A DNA stretch of 64,000 nucleotides from Microbacterium sp. Yaish 1 (GTDB lineage: Bacteria; Actinomycetota; Actinomycetes; Actinomycetales; Microbacteriaceae), in NCBI RefSeq assembly GCF_002245215.1, contig NZ_NPMR01000001.1, positions 558,001-622,000 of the forward strand. Direction: 5' to 3'. The notes beneath the pieces were generated by a model. It did no database searches, had not been told where the DNA came from, and worked only from the letters and a program-made list of their open reading frames with translations. Below, piece after piece: positions 33,074 through 64,000 of this stretch. Each line of letters opens with the position of its first letter. Position 1 is the stretch's first letter. The position numbers and the translations under genes are program-made.

Positions 33074-33162
33074 GCGATACATCCGTCGGACGCGCGGGGC
33101 TGATGTCGCCTCGAATGCCCCTGGGCACCCCACCAGCACCACCCGTCCGACGTCTGTATCGC
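33074..33162. repeat. Long-range imperfect palindrome
   Basis: Arms at 33074-33092 and 33144-33162 are inverted and match at 17 of 19 positions (outer GCGATACA and inner CGTCGGACG), with 51 nt between. It fills most of the 150-nt gap between two plus-strand genes. It may be a terminator or a dispersed palindromic element. Confidence 0.6.
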
Positions 33163-42237: not shown

Positions 42238-42269
42238 CCCGGCGCCCGGCTGACCCACCACCCGCACCC

Positions 42270-42324
42270 GAGGTCCCAGTTCGGCCGGGAACTCGGCGGC
42301 TATACCCGGCTCAAGTGGGACCTC
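42270..42324. repeat. 55-nt palindromic element, copy 1
   Basis: Ends pair as GAGGTCCCA with TGGGACCTC, and the inner GCCGGG with CCCGGC, with two mismatches, a G-T pair and a 15-nt loop. Its first 23 nt are identical to copy 2 at 43341-43395, and both are exactly 55 nt. It begins 32 nt after the hydrolase stop and ends 16 nt before the DUF559 stop. Confidence 0.85.
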
Positions 42325-42340
42325 GGTGGCGCCTCGGGGG

Positions 42341-43267
42341 TCAGGGACGCCAGCCAGCGCGGAGAAGGCCAGACCGGACCATATCGACCGCCCGTCGGCC
42401 GTCGCCGCGAAGATGGTGTCGCAGGATGCGCACGTGCTCCCACCCAGCCTCGCGGATCGCGTGCCAGCGGTCGGCGTCTCGCGCGAACTGGGCGTCGTCG
42501 AAGGCATGCTGGCGCCCGTCGTACTCGACCGCCACGCGCCATCGCCGGTAGGCGAGGTCGAGACGTGCGATGAAGACGCCCGACGCATGTCGCAGCTCGG
42601 GATTCAGCTCCGGCTCAGGGAGTCCCGCCCTCTGTAGGACGAGACGCAGACGCGTCTCCTCCGACGATTCCGAACCGGGCCGGATGTCGGACAGCGCACG
42701 GATGAGCCGGCTGCGCCCGCGCGTCGCGTGCAGCTCGACTTCCTCCGCCAGCTGGTCGAGGGTCACGAGCCCGCCGCGGCCCACGAGGTAGTCGCCGGCC
42801 GCGACGAGGTCCTCGTACTGCCAAGCCGCCCCGACATGACGCCACGCACGAGCGGGATGCTCGAAGGGGATGCCGCCCACATGCCATACGGCCGGGAGGC
42901 GTTCGCCCAGACGATGCCCGACGACCCCTTGGGCTCGCGGCTCGCGCTTCGGCCGGTGTGCCGCGACATGCAGGACCAGCGGGTCGCTTCCGATCGGGAG
43001 GGGAGCGCCGAATCGCGCGAGCGCCGTGTCATGGCTGAAGAACTGCCACGGCATCAGCCGCACCGCGTATTGTGCACACCGCTGAGCGGCATCCGTCGTA
43101 TCCGTGCCGCGCGGCACCCGGATCCCGCGGAACGGGATCTCGAGATCACTCGCGTCGAGCCGCCCCGCCGTCACGCCCATCGCACGGGCGGCTCCAACCG
43201 AGAACGGCGCGCCGCGCAGCGGCTCGGGCAGGGGCTGGGGTCGTCGCATCCCGACAGCCTGGGCCAC
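42341..43267 (-). CDS. DUF559 (Vsr-fold endonuclease-like) protein with AbiEi-type N-terminal region
   Basis: 308 residues. The C-terminal ~110 residues have the DUF559/Vsr-like core: IARLDLAYRRWRVAVEYDGR, QHAFDDAQFARDADRWHAI and GWEHVRIL, with the acidic and His positions of this nuclease-like fold. The N-terminal ~180 residues resemble the winged-helix/AbiEi-like region that often precedes it in actinomycetes. ATG 43249 (residue 7, MRRPQPLP) is an equally good start. No partner toxin gene is adjacent. The gene is bracketed by two copies of a 55-nt palindrome. Its role is unknown; annotated relatives are called hypothetical or endonuclease-domain proteins. Confidence 0.82.
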   Translation of the reverse strand: MAQAVGMRRPQPLPEPLRGAPFSVGAARAMGVTAGRLDASDLEIPFRGIRVPRGTDTTDAAQRCAQYAVRLMPWQFFSHDTALARFGAPLPIGSDPLVLHVAAHRPKREPRAQGVVGHRLGERLPAVWHVGGIPFEHPARAWRHVGAAWQYEDLVAAGDYLVGRGGLVTLDQLAEEVELHATRGRSRLIRALSDIRPGSESSEETRLRLVLQRAGLPEPELNPELRHASGVFIARLDLAYRRWRVAVEYDGRQHAFDDAQFARDADRWHAIREAGWEHVRILRHHLRGDGRRAVDMVRSGLLRAGWRP

Positions 43268-43340
43268 ATCGCCGCTTCAGCCGCTCCTGCCGCCGCGTCT
43301 GTGAGCATCACGGCGCTCACCGCCCCTGGGCAGAAACCGC

Positions 43341-43395
43341 GAGGTCCCAGTTCGGCCGGGAACCAGACTCTGAAACCCGGCCCAACTGGGACCTC
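43341..43395. repeat. 55-nt palindromic element, copy 2
   Basis: A nearly perfect hairpin: GAGGTCCCAGTT with AACTGGGACCTC (12 bp), one C-C mismatch, then GGCCGGG with CCCGGCC (7 bp) and a 15-nt loop that itself holds CAGA-C-TCTG. It lies between the add stop (43413) and the DUF559 start. A terminator for add is possible but copy 1 is not needed for that. Confidence 0.88.
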
Positions 43396-43412
43396 GAGGG
43401 AAAAGCCCGGGG

Positions 43413-60291: not shown

Positions 60292-60417
60292 TCCCGGGAG
60301 CGCCCCCGCCGCTGCGAGGGCCCGTCCGCTGCGGGCGGCCCCGTCCGCTGCCGGCGGCCCGTCGCGACCGGCGGGGCTGCCGGAACCCCCGTCGCCGCCG
60401 GCGGGCCTACCGGCACC
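60292..60417. other. GC-rich low-complexity gap
   Basis: No gene here. The stretch holds degenerate short repeats based on GTCCGCTGCGGGC and GCCGGCGGG, probably decayed versions of the 22-bp tandem array that follows. Confidence 0.55.
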
Positions 60418-60505
60418 GTCCTGCGGGGTAGCCGTCCCCGTCCTGCGGGGTAGCCGTCCCTGTCCTGTGGAGTAGCCGTCGCTGTCCTGTGGAGTAGCCC
60501 TCGCG
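60418..60505. repeat. Four tandem copies of a 22-bp repeat
   Basis: GTCCTGCGGGGTAGCCGTCC-type units repeat four times without spacers at exactly 22-bp steps; two copies read GCGGGG and two GTGGAG. No spacers, so not CRISPR. Likely slippage-expanded intergenic DNA. Confidence 0.85.
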
Positions 60506-60528
60506 CCGGCGCCCTGTCTCCTCGTCCC

Positions 60529-61016
60529 GTCAACAGGCTCAGCGCCCCACCCAAGCCTCTACGCGCGACCGCGAGCCGGTTCAGCCTGCGGACGGCACGC
60601 GGAGCAGCATGCATCCGCACTCCGGTCGACCGGCGACCGAGACCGGTCGACCCGCCGACCGAGAACCGCTCCACGCGCCGGGCGGCCCGGAGAACAGCCC
60701 TGTCTTCGCGTCATCCCCGTTCCGTCAACAGGCTCAGCGCCCCACCCAAGCCTCTACGCGCGACCGCGAGCCGGTTCAGCCTGCGGACGGCACGCGGAGC
60801 AGCATGCATCCGCACTCCGGTCGACCGGCGACCGAGACCGGTCGACCCGCCGACCGAGAACCGCTCCACGCGCCGGGCGGGCCGGAGAACAGCCCTGTCT
60901 TCGCGTCATCCCCGTCCCGTCAACAGGCTCAGCGCCCCACCCAAGCCCCTACGCCCCACCGCGAGCCGTCTCAGCCTGCGCACGGCACGCAGAGCAGCAG
61001 GCATCCGCTGGTCGAA
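60529..61016. repeat. 195-bp tandem direct repeat (two full copies and a degenerate partial third)
   Basis: Units begin at 60529, 60724 and 60919 with GTCAACAGGCTCAGCGCCCC and are exactly 195 bp long. Full copies 1 and 2 are almost identical; the third has changes and ends near 61016, close to the DUF559 stop. Each full unit contains inverted arms CCGTCAACAGGCT and AGCCTGCGGACGG (11 of 13 match), a GGTCGACCGG-rich centre, and ends CGTCATCCCCG. The 65-codon open frame through it is a by-product of the period. Confidence 0.88.
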
Positions 61017-61019
61017 GCG

Positions 61020-61901
61020 TCAGCGCACGCGAGCCGGCCGCACACCGGATGCGAGAACGCCGCGCACGGCTTCGAGGACCCGATCGGGTCGCCACATGAT
61101 GTCCGCCGCCATCGGTCGTAGCGTCAGGTAGCCGAGGGCTGCGGCCGCGAGGTCGCGCGCGCTGTCTCGTCGGCGCGCGTCGAGCCCGGAATGGTGAGCA
61201 TCGCTGTCGCACTCCACGATCAGCCATCCATCGACCAGCAGATCGACTCGTCCCACTCCGGGGATGCGCACCTGAACCTCGACCGTCTTGGCGATTCCGC
61301 GCAGGAGGAGCCGCATGAGCGTCTCCGGTCCGGATTCGGCCCGCCCGTCGATCAGACGCCGGAGCGGGCGGTATCGGAGAGGCAGGGCCGCAAAGACGCT
61401 GTCGAGATCCGCAGCCTGGAGCAGCCCGAGGTGAAGCGCACTGTCGAGCGTGGCAACGGCAGCTCGGAGCGGCTGGCACTGCACCGCACGCACCAGCGCG
61501 TCGATCATGCTCGAGCATGCGAACCATCTGGGGCGCGGAGCGATGGGAGGTGTCCAATGCAGCACCGACTTCGACCCCGCGAGGGTCTCGCGCGTCGGCA
61601 CACGGGAGGCCGTCCGCGGTAGCTGCACATGCGGCCCGGCCGGCTCGAGGACGAACACCCCGAGAAGGCGCAACAGGCTCACACAGGTGAGACGACCGCC
61701 GAGCGAGACCGCGGCGACGACGGATGGTGGCGCGTCCGCGACGAGGTACGACCCCCGCCGGGGCCTCACGAGTCGGCCGGCGGCGACGGCATCCGCGATG
61801 TCGCGCTTGCGGAGACCGCCTGCGCGCAGATCGGATGTCGACCAGCAACGCAACTCCATGATCTCTGCGGGAAGCCATGTTGACGAGGCGTGAGGGTCCA
61901 T
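61020..61901 (-). CDS. DUF559 (Vsr-fold endonuclease-like) protein with AbiEi-type N-terminal helix-turn-helix
   Basis: 293 residues. The N-terminal part has the winged-helix pattern LRAGGLRKRDIADAVAAGRLVRPRRGSYLVAD seen in AbiEi-like antitoxins and their orphan relatives. The C-terminal ~100 residues contain GRVDLLVDGWLIVECDSDAH, HSGLDARRRDSARDLAAAAL and GYLTLRPM, the DUF559/Vsr-type nuclease-like core. ATG 61859 (residue 15) is a likely alternative start. It is bracketed by palindromes of one family: a 195-bp tandem array after its stop and two hairpins before its start. It is a distant paralogue of the gene at 42341. Function unknown. Confidence 0.82.
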   Translation of the reverse strand: MDPHASSTWLPAEIMELRCWSTSDLRAGGLRKRDIADAVAAGRLVRPRRGSYLVADAPPSVVAAVSLGGRLTCVSLLRLLGVFVLEPAGPHVQLPRTASRVPTRETLAGSKSVLHWTPPIAPRPRWFACSSMIDALVRAVQCQPLRAAVATLDSALHLGLLQAADLDSVFAALPLRYRPLRRLIDGRAESGPETLMRLLLRGIAKTVEVQVRIPGVGRVDLLVDGWLIVECDSDAHHSGLDARRRDSARDLAAAALGYLTLRPMAADIMWRPDRVLEAVRGVLASGVRPARVR

Positions 61902-61999
61902 GCCGACACGGTGTCTTCCGTGACCCCGCGCACGGCCGGGGTAGGAGGAGATTGTGAGCAGTTCAGCTCACCCGAAGCCTGTGGGAAAGCCGCTGGTTC

Positions 62000-62076
62000 C
62001 GTGCCGCCAACAGGCTCAGGCGCCGCACGTCGCACGATGAGACGCCCCGTGGCGCCTGCAGCCTGTTGACGGCACG
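62000..62076. repeat. Palindromic element A, upstream of the DUF559 gene
   Basis: Left arm CGTGCCGCCAACAGGCT followed by CAGGCGCC; right arm GGCGCCTG, one extra CA, then GCCTGTTGACGGCACG. The arms pair over about 24 nt with one bulge and one mismatch, around a ~26-nt centre. It shares the CAACAGGCT core with the 195-bp repeat. Confidence 0.85.
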
Positions 62077-62173
62077 GCTCGACGCCGCCTGGCACGCACA
62101 CAACGACGAGTCATCCGTCGACGCGCGAGCTGTCGGCTGACCGGAGCTCGGTCCCCCGGGACAGCTGAAACGC

Positions 62174-62248
62174 GTGCCGCCAACAGGCTGAGAGCGGGGC
62201 CCGGGGCCGCGAGGCACGGCGGCACCGGGCTGAGCCTGTCCGCGGCAC
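62174..62248. repeat. Palindromic element B, upstream of the DUF559 gene
   Basis: GTGCCGCCAACAGGCT and AGCCTGTCCGCGGCAC pair at 14 of 16 positions, with GGGGCCCGGGGCC-rich sequence between. Same family as element A. Together these occupy much of the 403-nt gap 61902-62304, which otherwise holds only the promoter of the following GNAT gene. Confidence 0.85.
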
Positions 62249-62292
62249 AGCGACGAAGGCTGGGCGCGATCGAACCGCCCGGCAGACCTCAG

Positions 62293-62964: not shown

Positions 62965-63828
62965 ATGCCCGAGATGCCGGAAGTGCAGGGACTCGTCGAC
63001 TACCTCGGCGGTCGCCTCGCCGGACGCCGCATCGTCAAGGCCCGGGTCAGCGCGATCTCGGCCCTGAAGACCTACGACCCGCCGATCGAGACCCTCGAGG
63101 GCACGACCGTGACCGCCGCAGCCCGCCACGGCAAGTTCGTCGACCTCGCCACCGACAGCGGCACGCACCTCGTGTTCCACCTCGCCAAGGCGGGATGGCT
63201 GCGCTGGTACGACGTGCTGCCGTCGACCGTCATCCGCCCCGGCAAGACCCCGATCGCGCTGCGCATCGGGTTCGACGACGACTCCGGTTTCGATCTGACC
63301 GAGGCCGGCACGAAGAAGTCGCTCGCGGTCTACGTCGTTCGCGATCCGGCCGAGGTGCCGGGCATCGCACGGCTCGGTCCCGACCCGCTGGATCCCTCGT
63401 TCGACCGCGACGCCCTCGCGAGCCTGCTGGCGGGCCGCCGCACGCAGATCAAGGGCGTGCTGCGCGATCAGTCGATCGTCGCCGGCATCGGCAATGCCTA
63501 CTCCGACGAGATCCTCCACGTCGCGAAGCTGTCGCCGTACGCACTGGCGGCGAACCTCGACGACGCCGAGATCGACCGCCTCTACGCAGCCCTCAGCGCG
63601 ACGCTCGCCGAAGCCGTGGCCGCGGCATCCGGCAAGCCGCCCGCCGATCTGAAGGACGCGAAGCGCCGCGGGATGCGGGTGCACGGCCGCCGCGGCGAAG
63701 CGTGCCCGATCTGCGGCGACGAGGTGCGCAGCGTCTTCTTCGCCGACAACAGCCTCGAGTACTGCCCGACGTGCCAGACCGGCGGCAAGCTGCTCGCTGA
63801 CCGGCGCCTCTCCCGGCTGCTCAAGTAG
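62965..63828 (+). CDS. Fpg/Nei family DNA glycosylase/AP lyase
   Basis: 287 residues. After Met removal the chain starts PEMPEVQGL, giving the catalytic N-terminal Pro and the adjacent Glu; H2TH region DQSIVAGIGNAYSDEILHVAKLSPY includes the conserved GIGNxYxDE; and the zinc finger reads CPICGDEVRSVFF then EYCPTCQTGG (Cys4). It removes oxidised bases and nicks the strand in base excision repair. ATG 62965 is required for the catalytic Pro; the frame is open to 62929. Confidence 0.94.
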   Translation: MPEMPEVQGLVDYLGGRLAGRRIVKARVSAISALKTYDPPIETLEGTTVTAAARHGKFVDLATDSGTHLVFHLAKAGWLRWYDVLPSTVIRPGKTPIALRIGFDDDSGFDLTEAGTKKSLAVYVVRDPAEVPGIARLGPDPLDPSFDRDALASLLAGRRTQIKGVLRDQSIVAGIGNAYSDEILHVAKLSPYALAANLDDAEIDRLYAALSATLAEAVAAASGKPPADLKDAKRRGMRVHGRRGEACPICGDEVRSVFFADNSLEYCPTCQTGGKLLADRRLSRLLK

Positions 63829-63902
63829 CGTCCGCTCGGCAGACCGCCAGCCCCGCACATGACGATGCGAGTCGGGAATGCCGCGCGCGTCCCCGCGTTG
63901 AG

Positions 63903-63908
63903 TACGAT
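63903..63908 (+). promoter_or_regulatory. Possible -10 upstream of the FMN riboswitch
   Basis: TACGAT fits the TANNNT pattern and lies about 13-18 nt before the aptamer; the -35 is not clear. Confidence 0.3.
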
Positions 63909-63920
63909 CGGAGTATTGAA

Positions 63921-64000
63921 CGTGCTCCGGGGTCGGTGAGAATCCGAACCGGCGGTGAGAGTCCGCGACCCTCGAGGCCCTCGGGCCGAGAGGTTGATCC
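63921..64000 (+). ncRNA. FMN riboswitch (RFN element), cut by the window edge
   Basis: CGGGGTCGGTGAGAATCC, then GAACCGGCGGTGAGAGTCCG and CGACCC match the 5' half of the FMN aptamer, and GAGGTTGATCC is the start of the next conserved arm. The element continues beyond 64000. A riboflavin synthesis or transport gene is expected downstream, repressed when FMN is plentiful. Confidence 0.92.

What the first reader, a model, noticed from the sequence alone, without database searches (positions are those of the whole stretch)
60529..62248. Second DUF559/AbiEi-like gene bracketed by a different palindrome family
The gene at 61020-61901 has two hairpins with core CAACAGGCT just upstream (62000-62076 and 62174-62248) and a 195-bp tandem array with the same core just downstream. 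The arms carry paired near-matches such as GTGCCGCCAACAGGCT with AGCCTGTCCGCGGCAC. Both sides of the gene thus hold the same repeat type and nothing else.
Basis: partly seen in the sequence, partly recalled or inferred. Interest (0 to 1): 0.7.

Follow-up and report, generated by a model that had tools for sequence, protein, structure and literature searches.

The report
Nuclease genes with private paired repeats
In a bacterium related to Microbacterium, a gene for a probable DNA-cutting protein sits between copies of its own private, precisely spaced DNA marks, which are also scattered elsewhere in that genome and nearly vanish in a close relative that lacks the gene; this looks like an undescribed gene-plus-repeat system.

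Summary
Gene 61020-61901 (AbiEi-like DNA-binding part plus Vsr/homing-type nuclease) is bracketed by five copies of one element: two inverted half-sites GTGCCGnnnACAGGCTSAG spanning 75 bp. The genome holds 57 candidate elements in 29 clusters; a 149-genome genus sample showed almost none elsewhere, though closer relatives fetched later share them.

All seven paralogues found here are bracketed by different elements, each with its own length, the same on both flanks (57, 60, 63, 68, 75, 82, 85 bp; some second copies degenerate, A's left side ambiguous). Of 80 related loci, 65 share an inverted pair between flanks and 55 have equal spans within 1 bp. The few larger spacing differences lie near whole helical turns. 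The arms do not co-vary as a hairpin would, so these look like paired double-stranded protein sites. In a relative lacking the focus gene, seven clusters holding 19 elements here hold 3, against 18 in a gene-bearing relative.

Best reading: the protein binds these paired sites as two protomers and its presence maintains or multiplies them. Binding is inferred; cutting and amplification are untested. One gene-bearing relative with few elements is counter-evidence. Searches of one open library listed no report of it.

The parts
61020..61901 (-). Focus gene C, 293 aa: winged helix + AbiEi-like middle part (about 19-185) and Vsr/EDxHD-type nuclease domain (about 190-288)
62001..62075 (.). C-type paired half-site element, 75 bp, 5' side of the gene
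62174..62248 (.). C-type paired half-site element, 75 bp, 5' side of the gene
60524..60598 (.). C-type element, 75 bp, 3' side of the gene, in tandem array
60719..60793 (.). C-type element, 75 bp, 3' side, in tandem array
60914..60988 (.). C-type element, 75 bp, 3' side, in tandem array
60519..61008 (.). 195-bp tandem array (2.5 copies) carrying three elements; one element was found on this side in M. arborescens DSM 20754 (L343), three in G287 and G288
60295..62271 (.). Whole block (repeats + gene) absent in genome G244, whose flanks are 86-89% identical
42341..43267 (-). Paralogue B, 308 aa, PF18741-type nuclease (hit below the curated cut-off)
42269..42325 (.). B-type element, 57 bp, 3' side of gene B
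43340..43396 (.). B-type element, 57 bp, 5' side of gene B
33076..33160 (.). Dispersed E-type element, 85 bp, matching the elements of paralogue E at G000:C2:966k

Best explanation
This is one of several parallel nuclease-plus-repeat systems in the genome. The protein joins an AbiEi-type DNA-binding part to a Vsr/homing-endonuclease-type nuclease. Its targets are elements made of two inverted half-sites at a rigid distance (75 bp here). Two protomers most likely sit on the same face of double-stranded DNA, one per half-site. The gene lies inside a cluster of its own targets; other clusters lie elsewhere, 16 of 27 in predicted gaps between genes. In most gene-bearing relatives the half-sites and spacing are kept and clusters hold several elements, some of them tandem duplicates; in the relative without the gene, clusters hold zero, one or two decayed elements. 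The likeliest cause is that the nuclease nicks or cuts at or near the elements and repair by local copying multiplies them, a selfish or semi-domesticated cycle comparable in outline with RAYT-REPIN. Shown by sequence: cognate bracketing, fixed private spacing, arm conservation, no hairpin covariation, joint absence; helical phasing is suggested by few cases. Inferred: binding, dimer geometry. Untested: cleavage and amplification.
For: Each of the seven paralogues found carries an element of one length on both flanks: A 82/82, B 57/57, C 75/75, D 63/63, E 85/85, F 68/68, G 60/60 (F reads 66 with trimmed arms; second-side copies of A, D, E and G have 5, 5, 6 and 12 mismatches; A's left side also fits 102 bp better, 1 against 3 mismatches). 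C elements: 49 of 57 span 75, the rest 74 or 76; a half-site scan over 30-140 bp in the stretches held also peaks at 75 (76 unique pairs, at most 10 at any other span), and B, F, E and A peak at their own lengths. Of 80 loci 65 share an inverted pair and 55 have equal spans within 1 bp, against 19 and 9 of 160 swapped flanks; 9 of 17 loci in other genera of the order have equal spans. Among 170 span comparisons in 70 genes 159 differ by <=2 and the other 11 by 10, 11, 12, 22, 33 or 54. Arms do not co-vary. Own-G288 orthologous elements: core identity 0.957, interior 0.643, n=10. Seven clusters hold 19 (own), 18 (G288, gene) and 3 (G244, no cognate gene) elements. Genome-wide rows at E<=1e-4: own 85, G288 75, G287 70, G354 62, G244 9. 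Protein and arm similarity correlate: rho 0.27, 74 genes with a scored pair, 0 of 1000 permutations. E193, D220, D232, H237 are invariant in 40 sequences. Precedent: AbiEi binds inverted repeat pairs as two monomers (PMC7319586 passages); I-Bth0305I dimerises on a nearly 60-bp target (PMC3943268 passages).
Against: G213 has an intact gene (74% identical) but only 11 model rows, against 62-85 in the other gene-bearing genomes counted, so the gene does not guarantee many elements; the model was trained on the own genome. 15 of 80 loci and 6 of 17 in other genera showed no shared inverted pair, and a cruder span measure from hairpin edges gave equal spans within 2 bp in only 13 of 46. Interiors of elements in different clusters are unrelated, so spread between clusters by copying is not seen; only local duplication is. 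The G288 stretches were chosen at model hits, which favours elements there. 11 of 27 dispersed clusters overlap a crudely predicted ORF and some weak single hits may be chance. Paralogue G is not peaked in the span scan. Nothing shows binding or cutting directly.
Confidence: 0.6

Rival explanations
1. Regulator and operators: the protein is an autoregulator whose nuclease part is secondary, and the elements are operators (own promoter plus a regulon), kept by host selection.
For: AbiEi represses its own operon through inverted repeat pairs (PMC7319586 passages); two elements lie upstream of the start codon; arms and spacing are conserved while interiors drift.
Against: Three elements lie downstream of the gene; of 16 clusters clear of crudely predicted ORFs 7 lie between convergent, 8 between tandem and 1 between divergent genes; clusters often carry several copies; element sequences turn over between species; the nuclease residues are invariant and the nuclease domain is the slowest-evolving part.
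Confidence: 0.2
2. Self-marking or titration: the dispersed sites hold or inhibit a dangerous nuclease (a DNA antidote), so cells must keep many sites while the gene is present.
For: Sites are kept in most gene-bearing genomes counted and nearly gone in G244, which lacks the cognate gene.
Against: G213 has an intact gene with few model rows; no toxicity data.
Confidence: 0.1
3. A REP/REPIN family recognised as single-stranded hairpins, as with RAYT transposases.
For: Gene bracketed by, and co-varying with, dispersed inverted-repeat doublets; several families in one genome; clusters. Same outline as REPIN-RAYT (PMC3116915 passages).
Against: Arms vary independently: positions 7-9 match in 0.404 of cases against 0.386 expected and 0.378 against 0.409 in G288; spacing is rigid or differs by about helical turns; the model folds as AbiEi plus Vsr-type nuclease, not a tyrosine transposase.
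Confidence: 0.04
4. Coincidence of common intergenic repeats beside an unrelated gene.
For: The repeats also occur in 27 clusters away from this gene.
Against: Seven of seven paralogues, 46 of 61 genes against 24 of 321 controls, equal private spans.
Confidence: 0.02

Closest known systems
RAYT (TnpA-REP) with REP/REPIN repeats
   Same: An enzyme gene flanked by inverted-repeat doublets that also occur dispersed; several distinct enzyme-repeat pairs per genome; tandem clusters (PMC3116915 passages; PMC3733652 abstract and passages).
   Different: Enzyme is AbiEi + Vsr/EDxHD-type nuclease, not a tyrosine transposase; arms do not co-vary as a hairpin; fixed private spacing; clusters sit at syntenic places in two compared species.
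AbiEi antitoxin (AbiE type IV toxin-antitoxin) and its operator
   Same: Residues 19-185 match S. agalactiae AbiEi 6y8q (Foldseek first hit, E 6e-4; Z 6.4, 158 aligned); AbiEi and Rv2827c bind pairs of 23-bp inverted repeats (PMC7319586 passages).
   Different: A nuclease domain is fused; about 37 bp lie between the arms (C type), not 3 or 13; elements are dispersed and lie on both sides. An AbiEii partner was not searched for.
EDxHD homing endonuclease I-Bth0305I, and Vsr
   Same: Nuclease domain matches 3r3p (Z 10.5), 3hrl (Z 10.1) and Vsr 1vsr (Z 8.8); I-Bth0305I dimerises on a target of nearly 60 bp (PMC3943268 passages).
   Different: The gene lies between whole elements, not inside a split one; many elements per genome; AbiEi-type DNA-binding part. 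Introns were not searched for.
CGTC-tagged REPs, which apparently lack a dedicated transposase
   Same: Dispersed palindromic families without a RAYT (PMC3733652 abstract and passages).
   Different: Described there from other phyla with other sequence; I did not test whether DUF559 genes flank them.

Membership tests
REP/REPIN-RAYT | Cognate gene is a REP-associated tyrosine (Y1/HUH) transposase | tested here: not met
   Pfam and fold: AbiEi plus Vsr/DUF559 nuclease
REP/REPIN-RAYT | Repeat kept as a hairpin (paired arms) | tested here: not met
   No excess arm-to-arm identity at variable positions in 57 own and 30 G288 elements
REP/REPIN-RAYT | Repeats dispersed, mainly extragenic, and flanking the enzyme gene | tested here: met
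   57 candidate elements in 29 clusters, 5 elements at the gene; but 11 of 27 dispersed clusters overlap a crudely predicted ORF
AbiE type IV toxin-antitoxin | AbiEi-type winged helix | tested here: met
   AbiEi_4 in 30 of 40 members at E<=0.01, though below the curated cut-off for the focus protein; 6y8q is Foldseek's first hit
AbiE type IV toxin-antitoxin | AbiEi C-terminal domain | tested here: inconclusive
   6y8q aligns over 19-185 with Z 6.4, rmsd 4.4; the tool warns that Z under 8 may be a common arrangement
AbiE type IV toxin-antitoxin | Adjacent AbiEii (DUF1814) toxin gene | not tested
   Neighbouring ORFs read by eye as sseB-like and GNAT; no AbiEii model search was run
Vsr/EDxHD/DUF559 nuclease | PD-(D/E)XK-type fold with conserved catalytic-type residues | tested here: met
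   the role of the residues is recalled, not from a call
Vsr/EDxHD/DUF559 nuclease | DNA cleavage activity | not testable with these tools
   Needs enzyme assay
Homing endonuclease | Gene interrupts its own target; intact target in lineages without it | tested here: inconclusive
   G244 lacks gene and elements at this site, so no target is left to see; the gene lies between whole elements

The most novel reading that the evidence does not exclude
Across this actinobacterial order, homing-type nucleases fused to an AbiEi-type binder run several orthogonal systems per genome. Each writes and keeps its own set of helically phased paired sites on double-stranded DNA, changes specificity quickly between species, and its sites collapse once the nuclease is lost: a nuclease-driven repeat system that needs no transposase and no hairpin.
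Probability: 0.45. Interest if true: 0.9.

Novelty: categorically new. Interest (0 to 1): 0.82.

Why it matters
Short palindromic repeats without a known enzyme are a standing puzzle: the paper on CGTC repeats says that they apparently lack a dedicated transposase (PMC3733652 abstract). Here a repeat family is tied to a named protein family, with exact geometry that can be tested on the bench, several systems in one genome, and a natural gene absence that acts as an experiment. The protein family occurs in 177 of 297 sampled genomes of the order, 60 of 94 genera; that the repeats go with it was seen in 9 to 11 of 17 loci outside the genus. If true, it gives a transposase-free route to dispersed repeats and a set of long-target nucleases with readable specificity.

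Tried and rejected
Known RNA family: two matches far below the gathering score at the site (26 against 90 bits). RNA hairpin or terminator: rejected because arms do not co-vary. Plasmid copy of the region: no megablast match. CRISPR-like captured interiors: considered because interiors are unrelated and of fixed length; not pursued, since tandem neighbours show graded interior identity (1.0, 0.89, 0.84, 0.76), which fits drift. First flank statistic (BLAST scores) was uninformative because flanking genes are shared between loci; replaced. In one search spans taken from hairpin edges agreed within 2 bp in only 13 of 46 loci; one search measured both sides from the same word. Dropped before counts: the hit at C1:190711 (E 0.62) from the 57; the PF18741 hits at C1:43979 (1251-residue frame) and C1:630148 (E 0.76) and 11 AbiEi_4-only hits (one, C1:1032882, over the cut-off, fetched as L067, not analysed further) from the paralogues; one gene with too short a flank. 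The helical-turn reading is post hoc: one difference per gene, 8 genes, R 0.98 at 10.5 bp, p about 5e-4. Bracketing beyond the order, for example DUF559 genes in alpha-proteobacteria, was not tested. Printed reports: the listings show no title on DUF559, MTES_1575 or AbiEi with dispersed repeats; abstracts or passages were read of PMC3733652, PMC12907096, PMC3710099, PMC7319586, PMC3943268 and PMC3116915 only; the library lacks most subscription journals.
Full report
WHAT IS THERE. The window is G000:C1:558001-622000 of a 3.41-Mb genome in 3 contigs; the closest named relatives by protein are Microbacterium, for example M. arborescens DSM 20754 at 89%. The gene at 61020-61901 (-) encodes 293 aa. 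On its own it falls below Pfam cut-offs (MTES_1575 E 2.4e-5, DUF559 0.001, AbiEi_4 0.002), but of 40 aligned relatives 38, 36 and 30 match these three families at E<=0.01. An AlphaFold model (pLDDT 92.7, pTM 0.90) has AbiEi 6y8q as Foldseek's first hit (E 6e-4). The structural aligner places 6y8q over residues 19-185 (Z 6.4, 158 aligned, a middling score) and, over 190-288, the catalytic domain of homing endonuclease I-Bth0305I (3r3p, Z 10.5), NGO0050 (3hrl, Z 10.1) and Vsr (1vsr, Z 8.8). E193, D220, D232 and H237 are invariant in the 40 sequences.

THE ELEMENT. The 'palindromes' resolve into a unit of two inverted half-sites GTGCCGnnnACAGGCTSAG. A covariance model built from 13 copies finds 57 distinct elements with best E below 0.1 in the own genome (113 rows over both strands at E<=1; one further hit at E 0.62 dropped), in 29 clusters of one to four. 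Spans are 75 in 49, 76 in 6 and 74 in 2. The model favours that length, but a scan for half-sites alone over 30-140 bp in the stretches held of own, G244 and G288 gives 76 unique pairs at 75, 10 at 76, 3 at 74 and at most 2 at any other span, while direct-orientation pairs show none at 75. Interiors of different elements are nearly unrelated (mean identity 0.345 against 0.317 shuffled), except neighbours in some clusters (1.0, 1.0, 0.89, 0.84, 0.76), which points to local tandem duplication. The three tandem copies beside the gene are one such case; M. arborescens has one element on that side.

NOT A HAIRPIN. If base pairing were kept, the two arms of one element should match each other at positions where the family varies. 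They do not: positions 7-9, observed 0.404, expected 0.386, p 0.32; position 17, p 0.51 (57 elements); in G288, positions 7-9, 0.378 against 0.409 (30 elements). Positions 7-9 were left unpaired in the search model, so it neither favours nor hides pairing there; position 17 was paired in it. Spacing points the same way. Over 70 genes with a shared pair (of 95 distinct tried), 159 of 170 comparisons of element length within one gene differ by 0-2 bp; the other 11 are 10, 11, 12 (three), 22 (three), 33 and 54 (two), near whole turns of B-DNA (coherence 0.94 at 10.5 bp; one value per gene, n=8, R 0.98, p about 5e-4; post hoc and small). This is what two protein protomers on one face of double-stranded DNA would give.

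EVERY PARALOGUE HAS ITS OWN. Family searches give seven members in this genome, after leaving out two other PF18741 hits (C1:43979 in a 1251-residue frame; C1:630148, E 0.76) and 11 AbiEi_4-only hits, one of them over the cut-off (C1:1032882). Each of the seven is bracketed by a different half-site at one length on both sides: A 82/82, B 57/57, C 75/75, D 63/63, E 85/85, F 68/68, G 60/60. The second-side copies of A, D, E and G have 5, 5, 6 and 12 mismatches over both arms, and A's left side fits 102 bp (1 mismatch) better than 82 (3). B, F, E and A peak at the same lengths in a scan of the stretches held, gene flanks included (B 8 of 8 pairs, F 8 of 12, E 7 of 10, A 7 of 13; G not peaked). 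One E-type copy lies in this window at 33076-33160.

GENERALITY AND CONTROLS. The focus protein has relatives in 144 of 149 genomes of the genus (E<=1e-10), and the family in 177 of 297 genomes of the order, 60 of 94 genera. Flank-sharing scores: 46 of 61 distinct genes >=24, against 24 of 321 control ORFs from 33 contexts and 107 of 330 mismatched flank pairs. One high-scoring control looks by eye like a broken family member (L161 17584), so the control may be somewhat too high. A set of 80 named loci, mostly Microbacterium, some labelled only Microbacteriaceae or Actinomycetes, overlaps the earlier set and holds some near-duplicates. In it 65 share an inverted pair and 55 have equal spans within 1 bp, against 19 and 9 of 160 swapped flanks (p 3e-25). 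An earlier score on the same 80 put 46 above the 95% null, but spans taken from hairpin edges agreed within 2 bp in only 13 of those 46; one search measures both sides from one word. In the 17 loci of other genera returned, 11 share a pair and 9 have equal spans, and 9 of 17 pass p<=0.05 against swapped flanks. Arm similarity follows protein similarity: rho 0.28 for 51 of 61 genes, 0 of 2000 permutations, and 0.27 for 74 distinct genes with a scored pair, 0 of 1000. The winged helix is the fastest-evolving part (mean identity 0.39) and the nuclease the slowest (0.58). Shared ancestry inflates such correlations, so they are support, not proof.

PRIVATE SETS AND A NATURAL ABSENCE. In 149 genus genomes the C-type model finds 32 rows in the own genome and 1-3 weak rows in five others at E<=1e-4 (stricter filters). 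A larger sample of 366 genomes brought in closer relatives. At E<=1e-4 the rows (both strands) are: own 85 (counted by me), G287 70, G288 75, G354 62, G213 11, G383 4, G244 9. G287 and G288 carry the gene at about 85%, G354 at 76%, G213 at 74%, G383 only a 48-residue relic; G244 lacks it, its flanks being contiguous where window 60295-62271 should be. On two neighbouring genes, G244 is about as close to the own genome (p-distance 0.104) as to G288 (0.105), and own-G288 is 0.114; G354 and G213/G383 lie outside (0.135-0.170). So the ancestor probably had the gene, and G244 lost it. G015, more distant, has its own version with GTGCCGAGTGCAGG arms: nine inverted pairs, eight at 75 and one at 76, two of them flanking its orthologue (my pairing of the listed places; with 2 mismatches allowed the pattern alone is no commoner than its reverse, 99 against 137).

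WHAT HAPPENS TO THE SITES. Of 14 G288 stretches fetched at model hits, 13 match an own locus with a cluster. Counts are only for clusters whose orthologous place lay in a fetched stretch. For 11 dispersed clusters compared with G288, own has 28 elements and G288 29; for 11 compared with G244, own has 28 and G244 7 (a separate scan shows one more near one G244 site). For the seven clusters in both comparisons: own 19, G288 18, G244 3. The G244 gaps there are 4-141 bp, against 300-902 in own. The G288 stretches were chosen because the model hit there, while G244's were chosen mostly by synteny, so the genome-wide rows above are the fairer contrast. In ten orthologous own-G288 elements the 26 core positions are 0.957 identical, the 12 variable arm positions 0.817, the interior 0.643; elements were found by their arms, and only pairs with interior identity of 0.6 or more were kept, which biases these figures. 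G244 (taken to be Microbacterium sp. SMR1) does carry another family gene, at the ADA site, with different arms, so the loss concerns the cognate pair.

COUNTER-EVIDENCE. G213 has an intact gene and few rows. 15 of 80 loci and 6 of 17 in other genera show no shared pair. 11 of 27 dispersed clusters overlap a crudely predicted ORF, and some weak single hits may be chance. The order of events in G244 cannot be told: gene loss may have followed cluster loss. The nearly equal distances among own, G244 and G288 leave their branching open.

HOW IT MOST LIKELY WORKS. Shown by sequence: a cognate gene-element pair, rigid private spacing, independent arms, joint absence. From established families: AbiEi proteins bind inverted repeat pairs, one monomer per repeat (PMC7319586 passages), and the EDxHD enzyme dimerises on a nearly 60-bp target (PMC3943268 passages). 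Inference: two protomers of this protein bind one element. Further inference, untested: nicking or cutting there, with repair by local copying, multiplies elements in clusters and keeps those with intact arms, so that without the enzyme they are deleted. Rivals are operators kept by the host, and sites that restrain the nuclease; neither explains the downstream location, the multiple copies and the private turnover as well.

NOVELTY. It works in outline like RAYT-REPIN but fails two defining features tested here (enzyme, hairpin). The listings, in an open library that lacks most subscription journals, show no report of this pairing.

Noticed in passing
window 42341-43267 and 61020-61901; loci L168, L172, L176-L180: Two sites about 18 kb apart (beside ADA and beside the GNAT gene) recurrently hold family genes in many of the contexts fetched, often in opposite orientation, and the same site can hold different subfamilies: own has B-type, G244 has C-type at the ADA site.
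   Followed up: partly
L173, L174, L175 (intergenic after ADA): Genomes G006, G024 and G027 carry inverted repeats with GAGTGTCCA...TGGACACTC-like arms at the ADA site; no family gene was seen there in the stretches held. Possibly another element family.
   Followed up: no
L161:17584-18800; L276:1242-1385: In G004 a family gene at the ADA site looks by eye broken by a frameshift; G383 keeps only a 48-residue relic of the focus gene.
   Followed up: partly
window 60300-60499: GC-rich 19- to 36-bp and 22-bp tandem repeats between the upstream ORF and the element array, of unknown meaning.
   Followed up: no
window 60622-60652 and 60817-60847: Within the 195-bp unit there is a second inverted repeat around CCGGTCGACCGG, unrelated to the half-sites.
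   Followed up: no
window 63920-64000: Looks by eye like the start of an FMN riboswitch cut by the window end; Rfam gave no match at the gathering score on 63800-64000.
   Followed up: partly
L153, L155: Some control ORFs in G033 and G029 contexts have high shared-palindrome scores (30-32); not looked into.
   Followed up: no
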